A program made the translations under genes and the position numbers. Positions 319-37,047 of a stretch of DNA of 37,069 nucleotides are shown one piece after another; position 1 is the stretch's first letter, and each line of letters starts with the position of its first letter. The stretch is taken from positions 1-37,069 of the IMG/VR virus record IMGVR_UViG_2209111020_000001; one strand, 5' to 3'. The notes under the pieces were generated by a model that did no database searches, was not told the DNA's origin, and saw only the letters and a list, made by a program, of their open reading frames with translations. This DNA comes from a virus.

Positions 319-696
319 GTGACAACCGATGATCTTTATGATCTGCAATCCCGATTGGATGAACAAATCAAGAAATATATGGCTAGCACAAAGTATGAGA
401 TTTATGTTTTCTCTGGTAGCCCCACTTTCCCGCTTCACCAGATAACGATCCATGAAGCTGTTGAAATCAATGGATTGCTTCTTTCGGGAACCGAGATACC
501 TATTAAACAGTTTGCAAACTTTTTTGCCAATAGCCGTCTTGAAAAGTTAAAAGAAATATGCTCGCCTGATGATTTTCAATTTGTTCATGTTTATAAATTT
601 ACTGGCTTATCCCCGGAAAACTGGGATAATGATAAAGCGGTTTATCGTTATGATCACAAAGAGTTCAATCTGTTTGGGCAGAGAAAAAAATGCTAA
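319..696 (+). CDS. Unknown protein; annotated GTG start has no RBS and the frame extends upstream
   Basis: From the GTG at 319 this encodes 125 residues of unknown function. No ribosome binding site precedes that GTG. The same frame stays open back to 166 and encodes protein-like sequence from about 205 (KFYPTQQQRNEEWIKNN, then REHKRYLSKRSSARSF) that joins smoothly to the annotated start. From memory this stretch resembles the N-terminus of small hypothetical proteins of Gram-positive phages, where it starts with Met-Glu-Asn-Lys. Here the frame has no ATG, GTG or TTG between 166 and 318. Either the normal start has been lost, or translation begins on an unusual codon coupled to the stop of the preceding gene (207-209). 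The C-terminal half is not recognised. Confidence 0.55.
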   Translation: MTTDDLYDLQSRLDEQIKKYMASTKYEIYVFSGSPTFPLHQITIHEAVEINGLLLSGTEIPIKQFANFFANSRLEKLKEICSPDDFQFVHVYKFTGLSPENWDNDKAVYRYDHKEFNLFGQRKKC

Positions 697-923: not shown

Positions 924-1199
924 TTATTTCTGATTCTTTGGCTTGCTATATAGTAGTGCCTGTGCGCTATCATTAATCCCTTTTGTGGTCGGATCCGTTA
1001 CCGCATGATAAACGCTGACAATCACGAGCGCCAGCACATACGGGTTTTTGATGGCTGCCACAATTAGACCGATCAGGATCGGCCAGCTGGTGACATCGGC
1101 GCCTGTCAGCCCGGCGTATGCTAGGATCGGCAGAAGAATAGAAACAATGATCTGAGCAACGAACAGCGGATTTTTAAAACGAATTTTCCAGTTAATCAT
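924..1199 (-). CDS. Holin, phi LC3 family
   Basis: A 91-residue holin that should form lesions in the cytoplasmic membrane and release the endolysin at the end of the lytic cycle. The N-terminus is a short cationic stretch (INWKIRFKNP). Two hydrophobic segments follow (about residues 13-31 and 42-63), then the sequence DPTTKGINDS and a charged tail. This NP...DPTTKG layout is characteristic of phi LC3-type holins, and the length is usual for the family. It is the last gene of the leftward late operon, 15 bases after the endolysin, with a good upstream GGGAG. The terminator at 772-798 lies downstream. Confidence 0.88.
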   Translation of the reverse strand: MINWKIRFKNPLFVAQIIVSILLPILAYAGLTGADVTSWPILIGLIVAAIKNPYVLALVIVSVYHAVTDPTTKGINDSAQALLYSKPKNQK

Positions 1200-2376: not shown

Positions 2377-2685
2377 TTATCTGCTGAAAAAATAGTTAAC
2401 AATGATCGTGGCCAGCGTGACGACCCCGCCGATCGGGATAGCCAGCTTGCTAATCGCCTGCCATGTCCAGATATGTGCTTCCTGCTTTTTTTGCTGAATC
2501 CCACCAAGCATCCGGATGACCTCTGTGTTTTGCTCACGGAGATACTTATTTGATTCATCGTTCCGAGCATTTCCATCCTTGATCTGGTCGGACAGGCTGC
2601 TGATCCTTGCCTTTATATCCTCCTGCCCATCCTCCAGCCGCTCGATGCGCTTTTCATGGTCTTTCAGCTGCTCCTGTGTATCCAC
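2377..2685 (-). CDS. xhlA: XhlA-like small membrane protein of the lysis cassette
   Basis: About 102 residues. The N-terminal two-thirds is a charged coiled coil (EQLKDHEKRIERLEDGQEDI), and one C-terminal transmembrane segment (IPIGGVVTLATIIVNYFF) ends in SR. This is the architecture of the XhlA hemolysin/holin-partner family found just before endolysin genes in Bacilli phages. In PBSX-like cassettes XhlA works together with the holin for lysis. The GTG at 2685 is preferred because GAGGTG is correctly spaced before it; the ATG at 2691 is too close to that site, and the frame open to 2745 adds an unusual hydrophobic extension. The gene lies downstream of the moron terminator (2764-2790). Confidence 0.8.
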   Translation of the reverse strand: MDTQEQLKDHEKRIERLEDGQEDIKARISSLSDQIKDGNARNDESNKYLREQNTEVIRMLGGIQQKKQEAHIWTWQAISKLAIPIGGVVTLATIIVNYFFSR

Positions 2686-2763
2686 CCTCATCACCTCGAT
2701 AAATAAGCATAAAAATAGACCCATATGGGCCAGATATTGGATCACTTCCTTTATTGAGGTACG

Positions 2764-2790
2764 AAAAAAGAGCCCCGATTATCGGGACTC
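2764..2790 (-). terminator. Strong terminator after the SGNH hydrolase gene
   Basis: On the minus strand there is an 8-bp GC-rich stem (GAGTCCCG with CGGGGCTC, loop ATAAT) followed by six T residues. It lies about 20 bases after the stop of the SGNH gene and before the lysis cassette. It closes an independent transcription unit, and it would also block late transcripts from reaching the lysis genes unless there is read-through, antitermination or a local promoter. Confidence 0.88.
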
Positions 2791-2810
2791 CTTACGTCGC
2801 AGTAGCGTCC

Positions 2811-3527
2811 TTATTTGACATATTTTTTAATATTACTTTCCCAAATTTTATATCCATTACCATTAAGGTGCACACCATCAATAGTTAAACTTTTATTTAA
2901 TTCCCCTGTAGAATCAAATAATGGATATAAATCAATAAAAGTTAAATTATTTTTATCAGCTAACTGTTTAATTTTTAAATTTGTATTTTTTATATCCCCG
3001 TTTGATATATTTGTATCTAGTAGAGAATGGTTAATAGGCAAGATGCTTTGCACATAAATTTTAGACTCTGGAGATTTTGCTTTTATTTCATCGAAAAACT
3101 TTTGATAATTTTTTAAAACGCTTTTTTGACTTGCACCATGTGTTAAGTCATTGATTCCCATCATAATAAATATCTTTTTGGGATTTCCTTTGACAATATT
3201 ATTAATATTGTCAATGATTCCAGGTGTTTGATCACCTTCAATACCGCGATTCTTAATTGTGCTATTTTTAAAGGCCTCATCCCATTCGTTATAATCAGTA
3301 AGACTATCACCCGCAAAGATTATACTAGGATTAGCATCCGGCAATGCAGAAAAGGCACTTTTTTCAACATTATGATAGACGGAAAATTTATTTGATCCAG
3401 TTTTTGCGATACTGGATTTAATATAAGATATTCCACCTTTGTGAATAATAAAAGCTGATAATAATCCAACAAACAACAAATTAAAAACAAGTGAAATGCT
3501 CATTATCCATACATATACTTTTTTCAC
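2811..3527 (-). CDS. Membrane-anchored SGNH/GDSL-type hydrolase, probable moron
   Basis: A 238-residue SGNH-fold esterase candidate. A single N-terminal membrane anchor (about residues 7-28) puts the catalytic domain outside the cell. Block I is GDSLTD (Ser75), block II Gly is in NRGIEGD (Gly95), block III is MGIND (Asn126), and block V is DGVHLNG (Asp217, His220). All four catalytic blocks are present, so an active enzyme is expected. The family acts on acyl or acetyl esters, including those on cell-wall polymers; the substrate here is unknown. The GTG start has GAGGAG in front. The gene is visibly much richer in AT than its neighbours and has its own promoter (3560-3587) and terminator (2764-2790), which fits a recently acquired gene expressed in the lysogen. 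Confidence 0.88.
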   Translation of the reverse strand: MKKVYVWIMSISLVFNLLFVGLLSAFIIHKGGISYIKSSIAKTGSNKFSVYHNVEKSAFSALPDANPSIIFAGDSLTDYNEWDEAFKNSTIKNRGIEGDQTPGIIDNINNIVKGNPKKIFIMMGINDLTHGASQKSVLKNYQKFFDEIKAKSPESKIYVQSILPINHSLLDTNISNGDIKNTNLKIKQLADKNNLTFIDLYPLFDSTGELNKSLTIDGVHLNGNGYKIWESNIKKYVK

Positions 3528-3559
3528 AGTGCAGTCTCCTCATTAGCATATATGGATTT

Positions 3560-3587
3560 ATTATATCACCTATTAGGACGCTGTATA
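3560..3587 (-). promoter_or_regulatory. Extended -10 promoter for the SGNH gene
   Basis: On the minus strand a perfect TATAAT (3560-3565) is preceded by TG one base upstream (extended -10). A weaker -35 element TATACA (3582-3587) lies 16 bp further up. It sits in the 45-base gap between the tail esterase gene and the SGNH gene and points at the SGNH start. No similar sigma-A promoter is seen between the other tail genes. Expression without late activation is inferred. Confidence 0.7.
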
Positions 3588-5306
3588 TTGATTAAAAAAT
3601 GCAATTATCTGTGACAAATACGGCGAAACATTAAATGTATGCCCTCCGGATGGAACAGATATTTCAGTTAGACTCATTGAAGCCGTTGCAGCCACAGTAG
3701 CAAGAGCGTCTGCATTTGCTGTTTTACTTACAGCTGTATCATCCATTGCAGCAGCAAACCACATGGGCAGCCCTCTAAATGCTGATGCATCCATTAGTGC
3801 TGGATCACGCCCAACAGTTTTAGCGGCATAGTCGCTTCCGTCTGATGCTATTCCATATGCTGTTTTAATTAAACTCATAAATGCAGGGTTATTATAGTTA
3901 TTATTTAAATTAAAAGTTGGTGATGTGGCTGCCCAAGCTACGCATGGTATTTTGTTTTCTGAAAGGGCATTTAAACTTTCAATTCCACCCATTGAATTAG
4001 CAAAAAATACGGTTCCGCTGATTGCATAATTATCTCTGACATACCTATACGCTTGGTAATAGGAATTTGTCGATGCAGAATTACCCCAGGTATATTTGCT
4101 ACTGTTCAGGCAACAAGACATAACAATATAGCCAGCAGCGACCAATGCTTTTTGTATTTGCGGATAGTTTGAATCACTACCCGCCGACCAGTAAGTTTCA
4201 TCTGATCCATTTCCATGCCAGCAGATAGCGAGAGATGACGGAATACGACTATCATAATTTACAGGTAGATATATGCGCCAACTTTGCGTTCCGTCACCTG
4301 TCCACTGCACTGTTTTAACCTGCCCTTCTCCTAAATTTCTTGGATAAATTGTTTCCAGCCCACGTCTCATGGCTATCGTCCCAATTGATACAACACCTCT
4401 TCCGTCAGTATTAAAAACATATAGGTTATTTACTGACATTTCTGTGCGTGGCTTTTTAACACAAAATTCAATGGAGCCATCATTTTTTAATAGGCACACA
4501 GATATATTCTGATCATCAACATCAACAATTGCAGTATAATCTCCGTCTGTCACTGGGGTATTGCTTGTACCATATTGATCTTGATGATCTATCCTAAATG
4601 CAATCTTGCTGTCCAAACGCATGTGTATCCCAAAAACGTTTTCTGCCCCAGGTGTTGGCTCAGCTCCTGGCGCATCGTCTGAAACCCCAAAAATAAGTGC
4701 AGCACTACCCCCCGGATTTGTAAAATGGATATTAAATATTGCCCTCATTTTATCTAATGTTCCTAAAGATATTGCATGATTTGCGCCAGATTGTTGGCCT
4801 GTAGTAACCGCAGTACAAAAAAGTTGGCTGCTATTAACGGTTAAATTTGTCGGATTATTAGTTACCCAATTAGACAAATTATCCCAATGCTCAGAAAAAA
4901 TTGTTGATAAGGTATCCTCATAGCGAGCGATTGATGCACTTGTACTTTTTAATCCGTCCATAATTGACCTAGCAGTAATCAATTGTCTTACTACCTTCAT
5001 ATTATTCGCCAACTGCGACGTAAAGCCGGCGTTAATTGTTCCTTGATCAGTTTTATTTTGGTCTATGTTTTCCTGCAGCGCATTCCGGTCCGCAGCAATC
5101 CGATCCCTGGCAGTCGGGTAGACAGTGCTATCCTGAGCGGTCCGGATATCGACAACCTCAGACGGCTGTGGCACATTCTGGATCAGCGTATCAACCCGGC
5201 TTTTTTGTTCCTGCATGTCGTCTCCGACATTGGAAAATAGACCTTTGAGCTGATTGTAAAAATCCTTCATAAAGTCTGTTGCTGTAAAAACATAAGGCCA
5301 TTTCAT
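3573..5306 (-). CDS. Tail receptor-binding protein with lectin-like and esterase domains
   Basis: A 577-residue virion protein, third after the tape measure. Residues 1-140 form a helical tail-attachment region with a coiled-coil character. Residues about 141-320 are beta-rich (for example LDSKIAFRIDHQ, DYTAIVDVDD) and look like a concanavalin/jelly-roll carbohydrate-binding domain; this fold is inferred. Residues about 330-577 are an alpha/beta hydrolase of the esterase/feruloyl-esterase type: oxyanion-hole WHGNG (363-367), nucleophile elbow ANSMGG (Ser438), acidic MDD (Asp522 or Asp523) and His556 in GGHTF. It probably binds a surface glycopolymer and removes ester groups during adsorption. 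AGGAGG precedes the ATG and overlaps the stop of the hub gene. Substrate unknown. Confidence 0.8.
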   Translation of the reverse strand: MKWPYVFTATDFMKDFYNQLKGLFSNVGDDMQEQKSRVDTLIQNVPQPSEVVDIRTAQDSTVYPTARDRIAADRNALQENIDQNKTDQGTINAGFTSQLANNMKVVRQLITARSIMDGLKSTSASIARYEDTLSTIFSEHWDNLSNWVTNNPTNLTVNSSQLFCTAVTTGQQSGANHAISLGTLDKMRAIFNIHFTNPGGSAALIFGVSDDAPGAEPTPGAENVFGIHMRLDSKIAFRIDHQDQYGTSNTPVTDGDYTAIVDVDDQNISVCLLKNDGSIEFCVKKPRTEMSVNNLYVFNTDGRGVVSIGTIAMRRGLETIYPRNLGEGQVKTVQWTGDGTQSWRIYLPVNYDSRIPSSLAICWHGNGSDETYWSAGSDSNYPQIQKALVAAGYIVMSCCLNSSKYTWGNSASTNSYYQAYRYVRDNYAISGTVFFANSMGGIESLNALSENKIPCVAWAATSPTFNLNNNYNNPAFMSLIKTAYGIASDGSDYAAKTVGRDPALMDASAFRGLPMWFAAAMDDTAVSKTANADALATVAATASMSLTEISVPSGGHTFNVSPYLSQIIAFFNQYTAS

Positions 5307-5312
5307 TGATTA

Positions 5313-6899
5313 TCAACCTCCTAGGGCGGTTATTCGATCATTTAGACTCTTTATCCAATCAGCGAGTGGCATATCAATCATTCCGTCGGGCTTAACGGTT
5401 GGATTAAATGTTTGTGGCACAATGTCTGGATCACTTGTCCAACTTTTTAGCAGATCAAGATATTTTTTATCGATAGCTGCCATCAAACCGGGGTCCGTAA
5501 GCGTGACTAAAGTAATCGCCCAATTCGTATCTTTTGGAATGCTGTTCCAAGTCTTATACATCTCCGGGAAAGCCAATCCTTTATCTATAGCAGTAACGTC
5601 TAGCGCATTACCTTGTCCAGGTATGTCATCAAGTTTGTTTTTATCATTGGCTGAAAGCAACCCGTCACTACTTCCTGTCGCAAGAGGAATACTCTCTGAC
5701 TGCGATGGATCATATCCGGGCGCAAAGGTTGTTTCCGGTCCAATCTGGCTCTGACTTTCCTGTATTTTCCCCTCGGACTTCGTGAGATCTAATTTCCCGT
5801 CCGAAGTAGTTAAATCATTTATTTTCGCAACCGACTCAGACACTGTTGTTCCGAGCGCTGTATCTTTAATAGTTCCGCTGCTATCGATTACCTTATTGAC
5901 CGTACTGGCAGCGGTCGAAAACCCGGACATTACGTCAACCACGTCTTTAACGATATTTGACGATGTGACTTCCGGCGGCTTATTCACGGCCGGATATTTT
6001 TTATACGCGATAATCTGGACATCAATATCCAGATTCATCGGCTCATAGATCAGCATCCGATGCTCACCGCGCTGCACATCTTCTTTCACCTTCAGTGGTG
6101 CGGTAATGCTGACATCCGGTTCATCCTGAAGCTGTGACGGCAGATAAGCCAGCATCGAATCCGGATTTGTAAACCGATCATCTCGAACTGGATCCGCATG
6201 CCGTTCGCCATAAATATTGATGTTCGGGCTTTCATAGGTAATAGGATCAAAGACATATGATCCATCTTCATTCTGTTTCCCATATCCGCGGATAACGGTC
6301 TTTATAGCACCGGTATCGATCGACAGCTGAACTTCATCTGTATTGTATTGGTACCGGATTTGCTTGTCGGTAACTGATCCCCATTCAACTTCTGAATAGA
6401 TGATCAGATGTTTGTTGTCCGCTTCCAGAACTCCGCCGAATTTTGAAAGGATATCGCCAAGCATGGACAAAGCATTTGCGTCACCGAAATTATCAATTTG
6501 CACCGTCGGAAAACTGCCGATAACCTCCCAGGTAAAGCCAAGCACATTACCACCAAAAGACCAATCCATTGCTTCATCAATCGACCATACTTTTGACTGC
6601 TGCTCATATTGCCGGTGATCCTGGCACGTAAAATAAATGTGTGGTGCCGTAATATCCACCGTTGCCAGCGGACCAGCCCCCTTCGGCTCCGTGTGATTAA
6701 TGAGAAACTGCTGTCCTTGGTAGATGATCTTTGATTCGTTTTTAAGCATGGCATAGGTGAGCGCATTTCTGACTGTTTTCAGCGCAGTGAGACTAAGCGA
6801 CCAGGCTGAGTTTTTCTGCCATTCTTCGGTCAGGCTGGCTGGGTCATAATCGATCAAAATTTCTTCGTTCGTTCCATCATTAACCAGCAAATCATCCAT
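5313..6899 (-). CDS. tal: Tail hub / tail-associated lysin-type protein (Tal, prophage endopeptidase tail family)
   Basis: A 528-residue baseplate hub protein. The N-terminal ~380 residues match the gp27-like/prophage tail family (ALTYAMLKNESKII, QQFLINHTE, then domains ending in IRYQYNTDEV and AIKTVIRGYGK). In this family the N-terminus forms the trimeric hub under the distal tail ring, and the C-terminus carries an extension that may act on the wall. Here the C-terminal ~150 residues are low in motifs and I see no convincing peptidase or lysozyme site, so enzymatic activity is not claimed. It is followed at 6 bases by the receptor-binding protein and preceded by Dit, the standard siphophage order. 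Confidence 0.85.
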   Translation of the reverse strand: MDDLLVNDGTNEEILIDYDPASLTEEWQKNSAWSLSLTALKTVRNALTYAMLKNESKIIYQGQQFLINHTEPKGAGPLATVDITAPHIYFTCQDHRQYEQQSKVWSIDEAMDWSFGGNVLGFTWEVIGSFPTVQIDNFGDANALSMLGDILSKFGGVLEADNKHLIIYSEVEWGSVTDKQIRYQYNTDEVQLSIDTGAIKTVIRGYGKQNEDGSYVFDPITYESPNINIYGERHADPVRDDRFTNPDSMLAYLPSQLQDEPDVSITAPLKVKEDVQRGEHRMLIYEPMNLDIDVQIIAYKKYPAVNKPPEVTSSNIVKDVVDVMSGFSTAASTVNKVIDSSGTIKDTALGTTVSESVAKINDLTTSDGKLDLTKSEGKIQESQSQIGPETTFAPGYDPSQSESIPLATGSSDGLLSANDKNKLDDIPGQGNALDVTAIDKGLAFPEMYKTWNSIPKDTNWAITLVTLTDPGLMAAIDKKYLDLLKSWTSDPDIVPQTFNPTVKPDGMIDMPLADWIKSLNDRITALGG

Positions 6900-6910
6900 G
6901 GTCTCTCACC

Positions 6911-7735
6911 TCACTTATACAAGAAGTAAAACCCAAAAGTCGACTCAGGATTCATCAGTCCGGACATCTCAATGTCATTCCATCCCGGAGCTAAACCAAT
7001 CAGCCCATGATTAGTGTCCCGGCCACAGCTGACGCCGTTAAGCTTTGGATAAACACCATCAATCGTGAGTTCATCGCCAGCAGCTAATTCCGAATAGTAC
7101 TGAAAAACATCTCCGGTCGTATGATTCACCAGCACTGGAATCCCTGTTCCCTTAATGCTGATCAGACAAAAATGGAATCGCGGATTGATTCTGACATTGC
7201 CAGCATTGAAAATTCGGAAGCTACTTTCTGTATGGTGATAGATCAGGTCTTCACCCATCGGAAAGCCCTGGCCGATCAGCTGATATTTGTCGGACTGCAT
7301 ATTGATCGGGTCAATATCCGTGCGTCCCAGGCTCTCCGCAAATCCCCGAAACGCCTCAAACTGTACAGTGAATGTTCCGGATCGCAGATTGGCTATTTTC
7401 GTAAATTCAAATGGCTTGCAATGTACGAGATACCGGAGCCCAGGCATCCGTGACCAGCTAATATAATATGGATCATAGTCGAACAGCTCCGCCCACACTT
7501 CGCGCATGGCCAGTGCGTAGTCCCAACGGTCCGTACCAGAGTACAGAAAGTCAGCTTCTATCGTTCTGAGGTCAAAAGTTGTTCCGTTGTCCTGCCGACC
7601 GTCTACTCCGGACATCTGTCCATACGTAGTTACAGGCTGAGGCCCCATATCCCGGACGCTGATTAAATGCGCGCCCTTGATGTCTGTTATGGCCCTCTTT
7701 GTCCCGTCAATTTTTTCAATTGTCAATGTCTCCAT
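6911..7735 (-). CDS. dit: Distal tail protein (Dit)
   Basis: A 274-residue siphovirus tail component (Dit family). It forms the hexameric ring at the tail tip, joining the tail tube to the hub. Family features include the N-terminal segment ending RDMGPQPV, the central RTIEADFLYSG region, and the DPYYISWSRMPGLRYLVHCKP stretch followed by the GTFTVQFEAF strand. The C-terminal half (GNVRINPRFHF, GLIGLAPGWNDIEM) is the galectin-like domain usual for the family. The gene starts 5 bases after the tape measure stop with GAGGGG upstream. Confidence 0.92.
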   Translation of the reverse strand: METLTIEKIDGTKRAITDIKGAHLISVRDMGPQPVTTYGQMSGVDGRQDNGTTFDLRTIEADFLYSGTDRWDYALAMREVWAELFDYDPYYISWSRMPGLRYLVHCKPFEFTKIANLRSGTFTVQFEAFRGFAESLGRTDIDPINMQSDKYQLIGQGFPMGEDLIYHHTESSFRIFNAGNVRINPRFHFCLISIKGTGIPVLVNHTTGDVFQYYSELAAGDELTIDGVYPKLNGVSCGRDTNHGLIGLAPGWNDIEMSGLMNPESTFGFYFLYK

Positions 7736-16913: not shown

Positions 16914-18587
16914 TCAGATCATGCTGCTGTACTCGTCAAACTTATCTTTCAAAACAATGTATCCATCAGCCAGTGAAGCCACTCCGTCAATTCGTTTACG
17001 GTTGTCCATGCCTTTCACTAGCTGAATATTGCCGTTAATGTCTGCCTTGATTTCCGTATTGCTTAGGCACCACATGTCGATTGGATGGCCATTATGGATG
17101 ATCTTCCCAGCATGCAGATCCGCTTTCAATTCCTTCAGCGGCTGCGACATCGTTGCCGGTCCCTGCCGGATTGGAATCATGCTGTTTGGTCCGAACTCCC
17201 CCTGAAACATGCGCAGTGTCGAATCATCAACATGCCAAGGATCGTAACCGATGTACAAGATATATAAATCATCATCATCACGTAGTTCTTTGAACCAGTT
17301 CAGGAAAACGATCTTGTCTACCTTGTTCCCCGGATATGACCGAAGCAGGCCCTGACGTTCCCAGAGCAGGTATGGAACGCTATCTCGTTCCCGACGGTTG
17401 CCATCTTGCGTCATCTGGTTCAGCACTTCTTCCGGAAGCCAGTACATGGACTTCAGGTAGATCTTGTCATCGTTCGGACGCATGCACAGCGCGTGAGCGC
17501 TGTTTAGGTCCGTCGTATCGGCAGCATCGAAGCAACCGATACCATAGCGGAAACCCATCTTGTCAAATTCGAACCGTTCCTTATTCTCGATCTCGTCCCA
17601 AGTGAGCCAGGCGCTTGCCGAGTTTTCCTTGATGTTAAAATCTTTCACCATAACGGTCGGCCGAAAGCCTGGGTCCTGCTTTGCCTTTTCAACATTCCCT
17701 TTCAGATACTCGAACGACTTGATCGTTCCCAGACCCGGGTTTGCCTTGATCCACATTTTCGAGTTGTCCCACTCATCGCGATCATCCAACTCATAGATCA
17801 GCGGCAGGAAACGATCGTCTTTGATCTTCCCATCCAAAACACCGATTGCGTAGTCATACTGAGCATCAAAAATACTGCCACGGACAAAACCGTTTGTCGT
17901 GATACAGGTCAAAAGCGGCTGACGACGTGAGGACATCGACTGCTTCATTAAGTCGTAAATATCGCGGTTCTTAATGGCTGCCAGTTCGTCGATAATCACC
18001 GCGCTGGCGTTCAGGCTGTCCAGAGTATTCGTATTACTGGCCAGCGCCTTAATCGATCCGAGATTAAACGACGAATATAAATCTGACTGCCGCTTTCTCA
18101 AATGCCGGCGAATATCTGGGCTTTGCTTCGTCATGTTCCAGGCTTCGACGAATCCTTTTTTCGCCTGGTCCTGCTTCGTCGCAATGAAATAGACTTCCGG
18201 AGCACCTTCGCCATCGGCAATATCGAAGTACAAGGAATCGGCGGCAAGCTCTGTTGTCTTACCGTTTTTCCGTCCACGGATGTCCAGCACTTCCTGATAC
18301 TGCCGCTCTCCTGTCTGCGAATTGACGAAACCAAAAACCGCCTGATGCTTCGCCTTTTGAAAAAGTTGAAGTTCAAGCGGTGCTCCAATTGTACCTTGAG
18401 ATTGTTTGCAAAACTTTTCGATGAACTCAATCGGCCGGTTCCCGGCATCTTCATCAAAGATCCACGGTTTATACTTCTCCGGGTGTTCCAACTTGTCCAG
18501 AAGCATCTTGCAAACTTGCTTGATCCGGTGACAGGCGACGATCCTGCCACTCAGAACGGCGTGTGCGTAATCTTCCAGATAGGTCAT
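16914..18587 (-). CDS. terL: Terminase large subunit
   Basis: A 557-residue packaging motor. The ATPase domain has a Walker A-like RKNGKTT (Lys110, Thr111), Walker B AVIIDE (Asp200, Glu201) and the adjacent adenine-binding YFIATKQDQAK. The C-terminal RNase H-like nuclease has acidic residues in GCFDAADT (Asp354) and IGYDPWHVDD (Asp449). The length is normal for the Terminase_1 type that pairs with P27-family small subunits. Its start overlaps the small subunit stop (ATGA). Confidence 0.96.
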   Translation of the reverse strand: MTYLEDYAHAVLSGRIVACHRIKQVCKMLLDKLEHPEKYKPWIFDEDAGNRPIEFIEKFCKQSQGTIGAPLELQLFQKAKHQAVFGFVNSQTGERQYQEVLDIRGRKNGKTTELAADSLYFDIADGEGAPEVYFIATKQDQAKKGFVEAWNMTKQSPDIRRHLRKRQSDLYSSFNLGSIKALASNTNTLDSLNASAVIIDELAAIKNRDIYDLMKQSMSSRRQPLLTCITTNGFVRGSIFDAQYDYAIGVLDGKIKDDRFLPLIYELDDRDEWDNSKMWIKANPGLGTIKSFEYLKGNVEKAKQDPGFRPTVMVKDFNIKENSASAWLTWDEIENKERFEFDKMGFRYGIGCFDAADTTDLNSAHALCMRPNDDKIYLKSMYWLPEEVLNQMTQDGNRRERDSVPYLLWERQGLLRSYPGNKVDKIVFLNWFKELRDDDDLYILYIGYDPWHVDDSTLRMFQGEFGPNSMIPIRQGPATMSQPLKELKADLHAGKIIHNGHPIDMWCLSNTEIKADINGNIQLVKGMDNRKRIDGVASLADGYIVLKDKFDEYSSMI

Positions 18588-34833: not shown

Positions 34834-35463
34834 TTGGACAGTGACGAACTAAAAAAGACCATGGCAAAAAATCTACGCTTTCAATTAGATAGGAAGGGAA
34901 TGCAGCAGACGGATCTTGCTAGCAAGCTGAGCATACCGGAGATGACGGTTTCAAATTGGCTGACAGCCAAAACCTATCCGCGTATGGATAAAATCCAGTT
35001 GATCGCCGACTTCTTTCATATAAGAAAGTCAGATCTAACGGAGGATATTCCGGATAACCTTATTGAGTATGGTCCCCAGACAGTTCCGGTACCAGTATTA
35101 GGAGAAATAGCTTGTGGTGATCCAATTTTTATAGAAGAAAATCATAGTGAATATCGTTATGAATCACCGGATATGCTGCCGGCCGGAAATGTAGCTTACC
35201 TTTATGCAAAAGGCGACTCAATGGAGCCAACCATACCTAACGGATCTCTAGTATTGATAAGTGAACAGGATGATGTAGAAAGTGGAGAAATAGCGGCGGT
35301 ACTTGTTGATGGAAATACTGAGGCTACACTGAAAAGAGTTAAAAAGCAGGGAAATCAAGTTATTTTGGTGCCGGACAACCCAAAGCATAATCCGATAATT
35401 GTCACTAAAGATAATCCGGTAAAAATAATTGGCAAAGCAATCAGATATACAAGAGATTTATAA
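34834..35463 (+). CDS. cI: CI/LexA-type repressor with S24 peptidase domain
   Basis: A 209-residue lysogeny repressor. Residues 12-66 are an XRE helix-turn-helix (LASKLSIPEMTVSNWLTAKT). From about 84 an S24 domain follows, with a probable cleavage site at IACGDP (residues 92-97), catalytic Ser129 in GDSMEP and catalytic Lys167 in TLKRV. So RecA-stimulated self-cleavage is expected, making the prophage inducible by DNA damage. The start is TTG (34834), eight bases after AGGAGGTG. A terminator separates it from the recombinase gene. Confidence 0.94.
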   Translation: MDSDELKKTMAKNLRFQLDRKGMQQTDLASKLSIPEMTVSNWLTAKTYPRMDKIQLIADFFHIRKSDLTEDIPDNLIEYGPQTVPVPVLGEIACGDPIFIEENHSEYRYESPDMLPAGNVAYLYAKGDSMEPTIPNGSLVLISEQDDVESGEIAAVLVDGNTEATLKRVKKQGNQVILVPDNPKHNPIIVTKDNPVKIIGKAIRYTRDL

Positions 35464-35517: not shown

Positions 35518-37047
35518 TTGCGTGTTGTTATTTACATTCGCGTCAGCACAAAGATGCAGGCCACAGAGGATAAATATTCCCTCCGCGCGCAGAAGACGGA
35601 ACTGGAAAACTACGTCAAGCGTATGAAGTGGCAGCTGGTCGATATTAAGCAGGACGTCGACTCCGGCGGAAAGTTTGATAAAAAAGGTCTGGATGAACTC
35701 ATGGATATGGCTGACACCGGCAAGATGGATGCCGTGCTTGTGCTTGATCAGTCCCGCCTGTCGCGTCTGGATGGTCTGCACTGGGAAATGCTTAAAGCTG
35801 TACTTAAGCAAAATAATATCAAGCTGGCTGAGCCTGGCCGCATGGTCGACCTTAACGACGACGTGCAAGAGTTCATGAGTGACATCCAAAACTGGTTCGC
35901 CCGCCGAGGTCGTAAGGACATTGCTAAAACGATGATGCGCGGCAAGCGTCAGATGATGCGTGAGGGAAAGTTCTGGGGCAGGGTACCGCTGGAATACGTC
36001 TACAACAAAGAGACACACACGGCCCGCAAGCGACCGGGATATGAGTGGGTCATACCGATGATCGACAAGCTGTTTCTGCATGATCAGGCCGGCTATGTGA
36101 CGATCGCTAATCAACTAAACAAGATAAAATACCAAGCTAATGGCCGGCCGTGGAACGAAACACTGGTTTATCGACGGTTGGTTTCGAAAGCCTTTCACGG
36201 CGTTGCTGAAAAAACTTTTGCCACCGGAGAAACGATCCGAATGGATGACTTTTACCCGCCGATGCGGACGCTGGAAACCTATCAGGCAATACAGGAGGAG
36301 ATCCACCGCCGTCATGTGCAGTATCGCACCTACTGGAATCCGAGTGGGCAAATCCATATGCTACGGCGCGTCAAGATGACCTGCGGCATGTGCGGCCGGG
36401 TGATCGCGCTGGAACAGCACGGGAAGGGAAATTATACAGCCTTTTATCTGAAGCATGGCCGCAAACGAAAACTTTCTGACCGGTCCGTATGCAGTATATC
36501 CATCAACACAAAACGGTGTGACCGGAATATTATCCAGGCAATCAAGGATATTTTGACCAGCGAACGATTAGCGAAAAGGTATATCGACTTATCGGATGAC
36601 TCAGACAAGATAGATGCACTTAAAAAAGAACAGTCGGTCGTCATCAAATCAATTAGCAAGCTCAACGAGCGCATGGACCGGCTTATGGATCTGTATCTGG
36701 ATGGTAGTTTCGATAAAGGTGAGTTGGATGACCGTAAGCATAAAATTGATCAGGAACGGTCGGCGCTGGCTAGCCGGCAGAATGAGCTGAAAGTGAAGCT
36801 CGACCTATTGGAAAAGAACCAATGGAATTACAAAATGATTTATGCGTACATGAAGCTGGCCAGAAATTTTGATACTGACCTGACACCACTTGAGCAGGCG
36901 CAGATGATCGGCAATCTGTTTCCGACTGCCACAGTGTACCTGGACAAGCTGGTGCTCCATGGCCGCCTGCCGATTGGAACCGTGCTTGATGTGACGGTGG
37001 GAATTGATCAAACGCATGTCGGAATTAAATATGGACTTAATGGGTAA
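35518..37047 (+). CDS. int: Large serine recombinase (integrase)
   Basis: A 509-residue site-specific recombinase. The N-terminal catalytic domain starts with VVIYIRVST (Ser10 nucleophile) and contains VLDQSRLSR with the active-site arginines. Residues about 150-300 are the recombinase domain (GKFWGRVPLEYVYNKE). A zinc ribbon follows (CGMCGRVI ... CSI...C), then a coiled-coil motif (about 355-440, IKSISKLNERMDRLMDLYLD, DQERSALASRQNELKVKLD). The start is TTG with AGGAGGTG upstream. It integrates and, with a directionality factor, excises the prophage. The attachment site should lie close to this end; only 22 bases remain after the gene. Confidence 0.96.
   Translation: MRVVIYIRVSTKMQATEDKYSLRAQKTELENYVKRMKWQLVDIKQDVDSGGKFDKKGLDELMDMADTGKMDAVLVLDQSRLSRLDGLHWEMLKAVLKQNNIKLAEPGRMVDLNDDVQEFMSDIQNWFARRGRKDIAKTMMRGKRQMMREGKFWGRVPLEYVYNKETHTARKRPGYEWVIPMIDKLFLHDQAGYVTIANQLNKIKYQANGRPWNETLVYRRLVSKAFHGVAEKTFATGETIRMDDFYPPMRTLETYQAIQEEIHRRHVQYRTYWNPSGQIHMLRRVKMTCGMCGRVIALEQHGKGNYTAFYLKHGRKRKLSDRSVCSISINTKRCDRNIIQAIKDILTSERLAKRYIDLSDDSDKIDALKKEQSVVIKSISKLNERMDRLMDLYLDGSFDKGELDDRKHKIDQERSALASRQNELKVKLDLLEKNQWNYKMIYAYMKLARNFDTDLTPLEQAQMIGNLFPTATVYLDKLVLHGRLPIGTVLDVTVGIDQTHVGIKYGLNG

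What the first reader, a model, noticed from the sequence alone, without database searches (positions are those of the whole stretch)
2764..5306. Paired surface-polymer esterases: a lysogen-expressed SGNH enzyme next to a virion-borne esterase
A membrane-anchored SGNH hydrolase with intact catalytic blocks, its own extended -10 promoter and a strong terminator is inserted directly behind a tail receptor-binding protein that ends in an alpha/beta-hydrolase domain with visible Ser438/Asp522-523/His556. Both families act on ester groups of sugars or cell-wall polymers. A simple hypothesis is that the tail enzyme strips an ester decoration to reach the receptor, while the prophage enzyme alters the same polymer on the lysogen surface and thereby excludes related phages. 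The arrangement is seen in the sequence; the shared substrate and the exclusion role are inference.
Basis: partly seen in the sequence, partly recalled or inferred. Interest (0 to 1): 0.72.

Follow-up and report, generated by a model that had tools for sequence, protein, structure and literature searches.

The report
Prophage surface esterase beside tail esterase
A dormant virus in a Gram-positive bacterium carries, right beside the tail enzyme it probably uses to trim sugar coats at infection, a separately switched gene for a membrane-anchored enzyme of the same chemistry; the same pairing recurs in many unrelated phages, which suggests that the virus alters its own host's coat to keep rival phages out.

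Summary
A 238-aa membrane-anchored SGNH esterase (3527-2811, minus strand) with intact catalytic blocks sits between a 577-aa tail protein ending in an alpha/beta-hydrolase (Ser438/Asp523/His556) and the lysis genes. It has its own extended -10 promoter and a strong terminator. The phage is temperate (repressor, integrase).

Comparison shows the arrangement is recurrent. Anchored SGNHs sit in this slot in 14 phages compared, always AT-richer than the phage. They have a median 82-bp upstream gap (4.5 bp for other late genes) and a terminator in 10/14 (2/40). The neighbouring tail genes encode a carbohydrate esterase or deacetylase in 10 of 11 phages found through the SGNH alone, against 2 of 60 random Bacillales prophages (p=1.5e-9); a smaller tail-matched control is not significant (p=0.10).

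Two phages carry same-family pairs: L025 (tail and anchored SGNH, 46% identity) and Arthrobacter phage Seahorse (tail ABH gene 33, lipoprotein ABH gene 34 on the opposite strand). The closest solved structures to the window SGNH are sialate O-acetylesterases.

Best reading: a lysogen-expressed O-acetyl esterase that changes the polymer targeted by the tail, blocking related phages. Shared polymer and exclusion are untested. New variant of a known kind.

The parts
3560..3587 (-). Extended -10 promoter (TATACA, 16 nt, TATAAT preceded by TG), overlapping the end of the tail gene and the 45-bp gap behind it
   Evidence: 1 of 200 shuffles of that stretch scores as high
2811..3527 (-). Membrane-anchored SGNH hydrolase, 238 aa; Ser75, Gly95, Asn126, Asp217/His220; GC 28.2%, GC3 20.5%
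3441..3506 (-). Hydrophobic N-terminal helix (aa ~8-29), putative membrane anchor
   Evidence: hydropathy; AF2 helix 2-29
2764..2790 (-). Intrinsic terminator behind the SGNH gene (stem-loop 2790-2770, T6 2769-2764)
4992..5306 (-). Tail protein N-terminal attachment module (aa 1-105), shared with tails carrying other enzyme domains
   Evidence: alignment; viral hits
4317..4976 (-). Tail protein middle part (aa 111-330), mostly beta strands, possibly carbohydrate-binding (31% identity to Seahorse gene 33 together with the C-terminus)
3573..4316 (-). Tail protein C-terminal alpha/beta-hydrolase (CE1-like) domain (aa 331-577), Ser438/Asp523/His556
5313..6899 (-). Tail endopeptidase-type protein (Prophage_tail)
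6911..7735 (-). Distal tail protein (Dit)
2377..2745 (-). Small coiled-coil/TM protein of the lysis region (weak haemolysin XhlA-type PHROG match)
   Evidence: 61% identical neighbour in L031
1215..2576 (-). Endolysin ORF (GH25 + 3 LysM)
924..1199 (-). Holin
34834..35463 (+). CI-like repressor (temperate lifestyle)
35518..37047 (+). Integrase (PHROG_95)

Best explanation
The SGNH gene is a lysogenic-conversion gene ('moron') inserted between the tail receptor-binding gene and the lysis genes. In the lysogen it is transcribed from its own promoter to its own terminator. Its product is a signal-anchored SGNH O-acetyl esterase that faces the outside and removes O-acyl (probably O-acetyl) groups from a host surface glycopolymer, most likely an exopolysaccharide or capsule-like polymer. 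The neighbouring tail protein carries a carbohydrate-esterase domain that processes an ester decoration on the same polymer during adsorption. By removing that decoration in advance, the lysogen no longer offers the substrate/receptor of phages with this tail chemistry, including its own progeny and relatives. Shown here: gene structure, intact catalytic residues, autonomous transcription signals, temperate phage, recurrence of the slot, and association with esterase-type tails. Inferred: outside orientation, acetyl as the group, the polymer, the shared substrate and the exclusion phenotype.
For: (1) Moron architecture in 14 phages: terminator behind the anchored SGNH in 10/14 against 2/40 preceding late genes (p=2e-6), upstream gap median 81.5 against 4.5 bp (p=4e-7), GC below the surrounding phage in 14/14; promoter combined p=0.0012. 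(2) Tail genes next to anchored SGNHs encode SGNH or polysaccharide-deacetylase domains in 10/11 SGNH-ascertained phages against 2/60 unbiased Bacillales prophages; p=1.5e-9. (3) Same-family pairs: L025 tail SGNH and anchored SGNH, 46% over 281 aa; Arthrobacter phage Seahorse gene 33, the best phage homolog of the window tail enzyme, and gene 34, a lipoprotein ABH on the opposite strand beside an HTH gene and an integrase, 38.5% over 109 aa, E=1e-18. (4) Closest solved structures to the window SGNH are sialate O-acetylesterases 6njc/7pzg, profile E about 6e-64, model TM 0.81 and 40% identity. (5) Relatives of the SGNH lie in O-acetylation or exopolysaccharide settings: a remnant in an EPS cluster between an Acyl_transf_3 and a Wzy gene in the same genome as prophage L026, 72% identical to that prophage's SGNH over 57 aa; next to an MBOAT (L168) or Acyl_transf_3 (L054, L187). 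(6) The close ABH-tail relative L294 (47%) is followed by an Acyl_transf_3 gene. (7) Precedent: E. coli mutants lacking O-unit acetylation are completely resistant to G7C, whose tailspike is a deacetylase (PMC10743462).
Against: In a control matched for tail type (A1 survey) the association is only a trend (p=0.10), and SGNH tails often occur without an anchored SGNH (L076, L092, L067 and the tail-SGNH phages). Two phages with the anchored SGNH have no recognised tail esterase (L026, L084). In the window the two enzymes have different folds, so a common substrate is not shown by homology. In L025 the anchored enzyme groups with a chromosomal one rather than with its own tail domain, so it is not a recent in-situ copy. 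The positive-inside rule does not clearly fix the orientation of the anchor.
Confidence: 0.55

Rival explanations
1. The anchored SGNH is a lysis helper: it removes O-acetyl groups from peptidoglycan MurNAc so that the GH25 muramidase endolysin encoded just downstream can cut, and is needed only late in infection.
For: It lies directly before the lysis genes; the window endolysin is GH25, and GH25 lysins also occur in L177, L180, L184 and L185. SGNH enzymes include peptidoglycan O-acetyl esterases (general knowledge).
Against: Other phages with an anchored SGNH in the slot have amidase or peptidase lysins that should not depend on MurNAc O-acetylation: L169 Amidase_3, L182 Amidase_2, L025 and L084 M15 peptidases. 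Own terminator and intergenic gap argue for expression apart from the late operon. Association with tail esterases is not predicted.
Confidence: 0.12
2. The anchored SGNH is the acyl-transferring half of an O-acetyltransferase system (as SGNH parts are in OatA- or PatB-type systems), adding acetyl groups to a surface polymer in concert with a host membrane acyltransferase, so that the lysogen gains rather than loses a decoration.
For: Homologs sit next to Acyl_transf_3 or MBOAT genes (L054, L056, L168, L187). Other phages fill the same slot with acyltransferases (L087 Acyl_transf_3; L028, L064, L090 hexapeptide transferases), and adding O-acetyl is the classical seroconversion route.
Against: The window phage and most others carry no partner acyltransferase beside the SGNH. 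The closest solved structures are sialate O-acetylesterases and the catalytic blocks including Gly95 and Asn126 are invariant.
Confidence: 0.15
3. The anchored SGNH is a metabolic or fitness cargo (host lipid or nutrient esterase) unrelated to phage adsorption; the slot is simply a tolerant insertion site and the link with esterase tails is chance or shared ecology.
For: SGNH genes are common cargo and related chromosomal copies occur in unrelated neighbourhoods (L159-L167). The window's two enzymes have different folds.
Against: Strong association with esterase/deacetylase tails; same-family pairs in L025 and Seahorse; the slot is otherwise filled by surface-polysaccharide genes (Wzy_C, EpsG, Acyl_transf_3, hexapeptide transferases).
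Confidence: 0.15

Closest known systems
Sialate O-acetylesterase of Phocaeicola (Bacteroides) vulgatus (PDB 6njc, 7pzg)
   Same: Same SGNH fold and subfamily; about 40% identity over the catalytic domain; catalytic blocks conserved
   Different: Free-standing bacterial enzyme; the phage protein has a membrane anchor and lies in a prophage late region; substrate unknown
Deacetylase tailspike gp63.1 of coliphage G7C and SGNH receptor-binding proteins of Klebsiella prophages (PMC10743462, PMC13123978)
   Same: Virion-borne carbohydrate O-acetyl esterase used in adsorption; host mutants without the O-acetyl group are resistant to G7C
   Different: Window tail enzyme is an alpha/beta hydrolase; neither paper, in the passages read here, reports a lysogen-expressed surface esterase paired with the tail enzyme
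O-antigen seroconversion cassettes of temperate phages (gtr glucosylation of P22/BTP1, O-acetylation of Shigella phages and Pseudomonas phage D3)
   Same: Prophage-expressed change of the polymer that related phages use as receptor; lysogenic conversion and exclusion
   Different: Those add a group; here the best reading is removal, by an enzyme of the same chemistry as the phage's own tail, in Gram-positive phages
Arthrobacter phage Seahorse genes 33/34 (MH910041)
   Same: Virion-type ABH enzyme homologous to the window tail (31% over 473 aa) next to a second esterase predicted to be surface-exposed (lipoprotein)
   Different: Surface enzyme is itself an ABH paralog on the opposite strand; annotated only as 'esterase'

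Membership tests
SGNH/GDSL hydrolase (PF13472) | Profile match and the four catalytic blocks (GDS, Gly, GxND, DxxH) | tested here: met
   E=1.6e-24; Ser75, Gly95, Asn126, Asp217/His220 invariant in 14 homologs
SGNH/GDSL hydrolase (PF13472) | SGNH fold | tested here: met
   AF2 pLDDT 84; top PDB hits are SGNH enzymes, TMt 0.81
Sialate/polysaccharide O-acetylesterase | Hydrolysis of acetyl esters on sugars | not testable with these tools
   Only similarity to 6njc/7pzg
Carbohydrate esterase (CE1-like alpha/beta hydrolase), tail C-terminus | alpha/beta-hydrolase fold with Ser-Asp-His triad | tested here: met
   Z about 22-24; Ser438/Asp523/His556 conserved
Carbohydrate esterase (CE1-like alpha/beta hydrolase), tail C-terminus | Specific similarity to CE1 or other carbohydrate esterases rather than to peptidases or lipases | tested here: inconclusive
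   CE1 hit 7b5v E=7e-5 and gut carbohydrate esterase 6tkx at 21% identity, but S9 peptidase folds score as high
Phage moron / lysogenic-conversion gene | Extra gene with its own promoter and terminator, atypical composition, in a temperate phage | tested here: met
Phage moron / lysogenic-conversion gene | Expression from the repressed prophage | not testable with these tools
   no transcript data
Superinfection exclusion by receptor modification | Lysogen surface changed so that related phages do not adsorb | not testable with these tools
   inference from co-occurrence and the G7C precedent
OatA/PatB-type O-acetyltransferase | Membrane acyltransferase partner (Acyl_transf_3 or MBOAT) fused or adjacent | tested here: not met
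   none fused to the SGNH or next to it in the window; partners are seen beside homologs in L054, L168, L187

The most novel reading that the evidence does not exclude
Temperate phages, mainly of Gram-positive bacteria, follow a general rule: the slot behind the tail receptor-binding gene (or beside the integrase) carries a lysogen-expressed, surface-anchored enzyme with the same chemistry as the phage's own tail enzyme. In this way the prophage uses up, on its own host, the very decoration its virions and their relatives need ('receptor self-consumption'). Tail enzyme and surface enzyme are swapped as matched modules.
Probability: 0.4. Interest if true: 0.85.

Novelty: new variant of a known kind. 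Interest (0 to 1): 0.7.

Why it matters
If true, it extends lysogenic conversion by receptor modification, best known from O-antigen phages of Gram-negative bacteria, to Gram-positive phages, and turns it around: instead of adding a group, the prophage removes the one its own tail reads. The identity of the tail enzyme would then predict both the surface change of a lysogen and which phages it excludes, and the surface enzyme would point to the receptor polymer, which is usually unknown for Gram-positive phages. Seahorse and its laboratory host offer an existing phage-host pair for a direct test.

Tried and rejected
Close relatives of the exact SGNH and tail proteins in IMG/VR by single-protein scans: none; the Dit scan also found none and the endopeptidase scan one locus. 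Conservation of the exact pair: rejected; relatives share the tail N-terminus but not the ABH domain. In-situ duplication of the tail domain in L025: not supported by the tree. Lysis-helper role: weakened by non-muramidase lysins. Chromosomal homologs as a guide to substrate: most (L159-L167) sit in uninformative places. G438's anchored homolog (L124/L131) is not in a recognisable prophage. GH10, Wzy_C, EpsG, Acyl_transf_3 and hexapeptide transferases in the slot were noted but not tested for matching the tail's substrate. The structural second look lists S9 peptidases first for the tail domain; a shared fold only. Literature searches found no description of this pairing in the held open-access library; subscription papers and most preprints are not held. 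The host of the window was not identified; the genomes searched are unnamed.
Full report
What is in the window. The window is a temperate phage record: a CI-like repressor (34834-35463) and an integrase (35518-37047) lie at the right end, and a minus-strand late region runs terminase, portal, capsid, tail, lysis. The tail module ends with Dit (6911-7735), an endopeptidase-type protein (5313-6899) and the 577-aa tail protein (3573-5306). Then come a 45-bp gap, the SGNH gene (2811-3527), a 66-bp gap holding the terminator, and the lysis genes.

The SGNH protein. Its profile finds sialate O-acetylesterases of Phocaeicola vulgatus as the nearest solved structures (7pzg 6e-64, 6njc 7e-64). An AlphaFold2 model built from 14 phage homologs (pLDDT 84, pTM 0.70) matches the same entries (TM 0.81 by target, 40% identity). 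The N-terminal helix is a probable signal anchor. Charges on its two sides do not settle the orientation, so an outside location is inferred from the enzyme family and from the many homologs of the same design.

The tail protein. The first ~105 residues are an attachment module found in many phages with different C-terminal enzymes. Residues 133-577 are 31% identical to gene 33 of Arthrobacter phage Seahorse, annotated 'esterase' (473 columns). A model of residues 111-577 (pLDDT 72) has a well-predicted alpha/beta-hydrolase C-terminus. By sequence the best solved relative is a CE1 carbohydrate esterase (7b5v, E=7e-5). By fold, carbohydrate esterases (6tkx, 21% identity) and S9 peptidases score alike. 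'Carbohydrate esterase' is therefore likely but not proved.

The slot in close relatives. L025: tail ending in an SGNH domain, followed by a membrane-anchored SGNH of the same special subfamily (46% over 281 aa, E=6e-76). L027/L059: tail with SGNH, followed by an anchored SGNH 45-46% identical to the window's. L031: BppU_N + SGNH tail, then a 99-aa protein, then an anchored SGNH (43%). L026: tail without a Pfam match, a Wzy_C-like polymerase and an anchored SGNH (49%). L028: a tail without Pfam match followed by a hexapeptide acyltransferase. The genome carrying prophage L026 also has an exopolysaccharide cluster (L056) with an SGNH remnant 72% identical to the prophage's over 57 aa. It lies between an Acyl_transf_3 gene and a Wzy_C gene, with a hexapeptide transferase and glycosyltransferase-like genes nearby. 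This ties the SGNH family to exopolysaccharide, probably O-acetylated.

Wider survey. A profile scan of IMG/VR with the anchored SGNHs found further phages in which an anchored SGNH directly follows the last tail gene and, where the contig allows, precedes holin/lysin genes. Pfam shows SGNH domains in the tails of L178, L179, L182, L186 and L169/L181, an SGNH protein in the tail operon of L184, and Polysacc_deac_1 domains in the tails of L177 and L180. Counting phages found through the SGNH alone (L026, L027, L031, L169, L177, L178, L179, L180, L182, L184, L186), 10 of 11 have a tail esterase or deacetylase. As a control I drew prophage tail loci by PF06605 from 299 genomes of the order and read downstream of 60 of them. 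None has an anchored SGNH and 2 have a tail SGNH. The profiles used recover every left-out known tail SGNH with E of 1.7e-11 or better. Fisher p = 1.5e-9. Limits: the control is one order and one phage type, whereas the SGNH-bearing phages are more diverse. In a small survey matched by tail N-terminus the association is 2/4 against 3/29, p=0.10. Tail SGNHs without an anchored SGNH are common. So the dependence runs from the surface enzyme to the tail enzyme, not the reverse.

Autonomous expression. In 14 phages with an anchored SGNH, a terminator-like hairpin with T-run lies behind the gene in 10, against 2 of 40 preceding late genes (p=2e-6). The gap before the gene has a median of 81.5 bp against 4.5 bp (p=4e-7). 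Its GC is below that of the surrounding sequence in all 14. Promoter scores are individually weak but jointly above shuffles (p=0.0012). This is moron architecture.

The Seahorse pair. Beside gene 33 (best phage homolog of the window's tail enzyme), Seahorse has gene 34 on the opposite strand, convergent, near an HTH gene and an integrase. It is a 275-aa ABH esterase with a lipobox (LSGC), paralogous to gene 33's catalytic domain (38.5% over 109 aa, E=1e-18) and 28% to the window tail (E=1e-10). It is found in no other phage of the collection at that coverage. Such a gene cannot be a late gene of the tail operon; it is placed to be expressed from the prophage. With L025 this gives two independent same-family pairs, in two enzyme folds and two bacterial phyla. 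In L025 the tree joins the anchored enzyme with a chromosomal anchored homolog of another genome (48%), with the tail domain as neighbour. The pair was thus assembled from the same enzyme family rather than by recent duplication.

Other fillings of the slot. Behind tails with the same N-terminus I found Acyl_transf_3 (L087), EpsG (L088), hexapeptide transferases (L028, L064, L090), an anchored GH10 (L073) and a polytopic protein (L074). A close ABH-tail relative, L294 (47%), is followed by an Acyl_transf_3 gene. The slot is a surface-polysaccharide conversion site; the anchored esterase is one of its tenants, and the one that goes with esterase tails.

Mechanism. The E. coli phage G7C supplies the logic: its tailspike is a deacetylase, its activity is needed for infection, and host mutants lacking the O-acetyl group are completely resistant (PMC10743462). 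SGNH receptor-binding proteins are frequent in Klebsiella prophages and two were shown to be active esterases (PMC13123978). That paper suggests acetylation/deacetylation as a layer of phage-phage competition. A lysogen-expressed surface deacetylase would copy the effect of the resistant mutant. I therefore take receptor self-modification by deacylation as the best reading (confidence 0.55). The lysis-helper, acetyltransferase-partner and unrelated-cargo readings remain as rivals.

Novelty. Lysogenic conversion that alters a polysaccharide receptor is well known. The pairing of a virion esterase with an anchored prophage esterase of matching chemistry, recurrent in Gram-positive phages, was not found described in the held literature, which lacks most subscription journals. 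I rate it a new variant of a known kind.

Noticed in passing
L290 (Arthrobacter phage Seahorse MH910041) 3869-5953 + and 5950-6777 -: Virion-type ABH esterase (gene 33) beside a convergent, paralogous lipoprotein ABH esterase (gene 34) near an HTH gene and an integrase.
   Followed up: yes
L056 8005-10971 -: Exopolysaccharide cluster with an SGNH remnant (72% to the SGNH of a prophage in the same genome) between Acyl_transf_3 and Wzy_C genes, with transposase-like ORFs around.
   Followed up: partly
L168 5504-8942 -: AT-rich chromosomal island: anchored SGNH homolog, MBOAT acyltransferase and a 348-aa anchored protein resembling AlgJ-type partners by position; looks like an O-acetylation operon.
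   Followed up: partly
L073 11374-12471 +: Membrane-anchored GH10 glycosidase in the same slot behind a beta-helix tail protein; another possible surface-polymer conversion gene.
   Followed up: no
L087 6955-7915, L088 9769-10860, L064 9618-10448, L090 4291-4863, L028 9507-10091: Acyl_transf_3, EpsG and hexapeptide transferases right behind tail genes: the slot looks like a general seroconversion site.
   Followed up: partly
L294 4726-8303 +: ABH tail domain 47% identical to the window's, followed by an AT-rich Acyl_transf_3 gene (37% against 50% GC); near-identical neighbour L297 also holds an integrase-like ORF behind it.
   Followed up: partly
L187 4845-6654 +: Acyl_transf_3 and lipoprotein-type SGNH overlapping, directly before an integrase-like gene in another phage type: att-side version of the conversion slot.
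   Followed up: no
window 16914-18587 -: Terminase large subunit 63-68% identical to Paenibacillus phage PG1 and Clostridioides phages: packaging module shared across distant hosts.
   Followed up: no
window 319-696 +: 125-aa plus-strand ORF at the left end, GC 37%, no PHROG match; possible second cargo gene beyond the lysis module.
   Followed up: no
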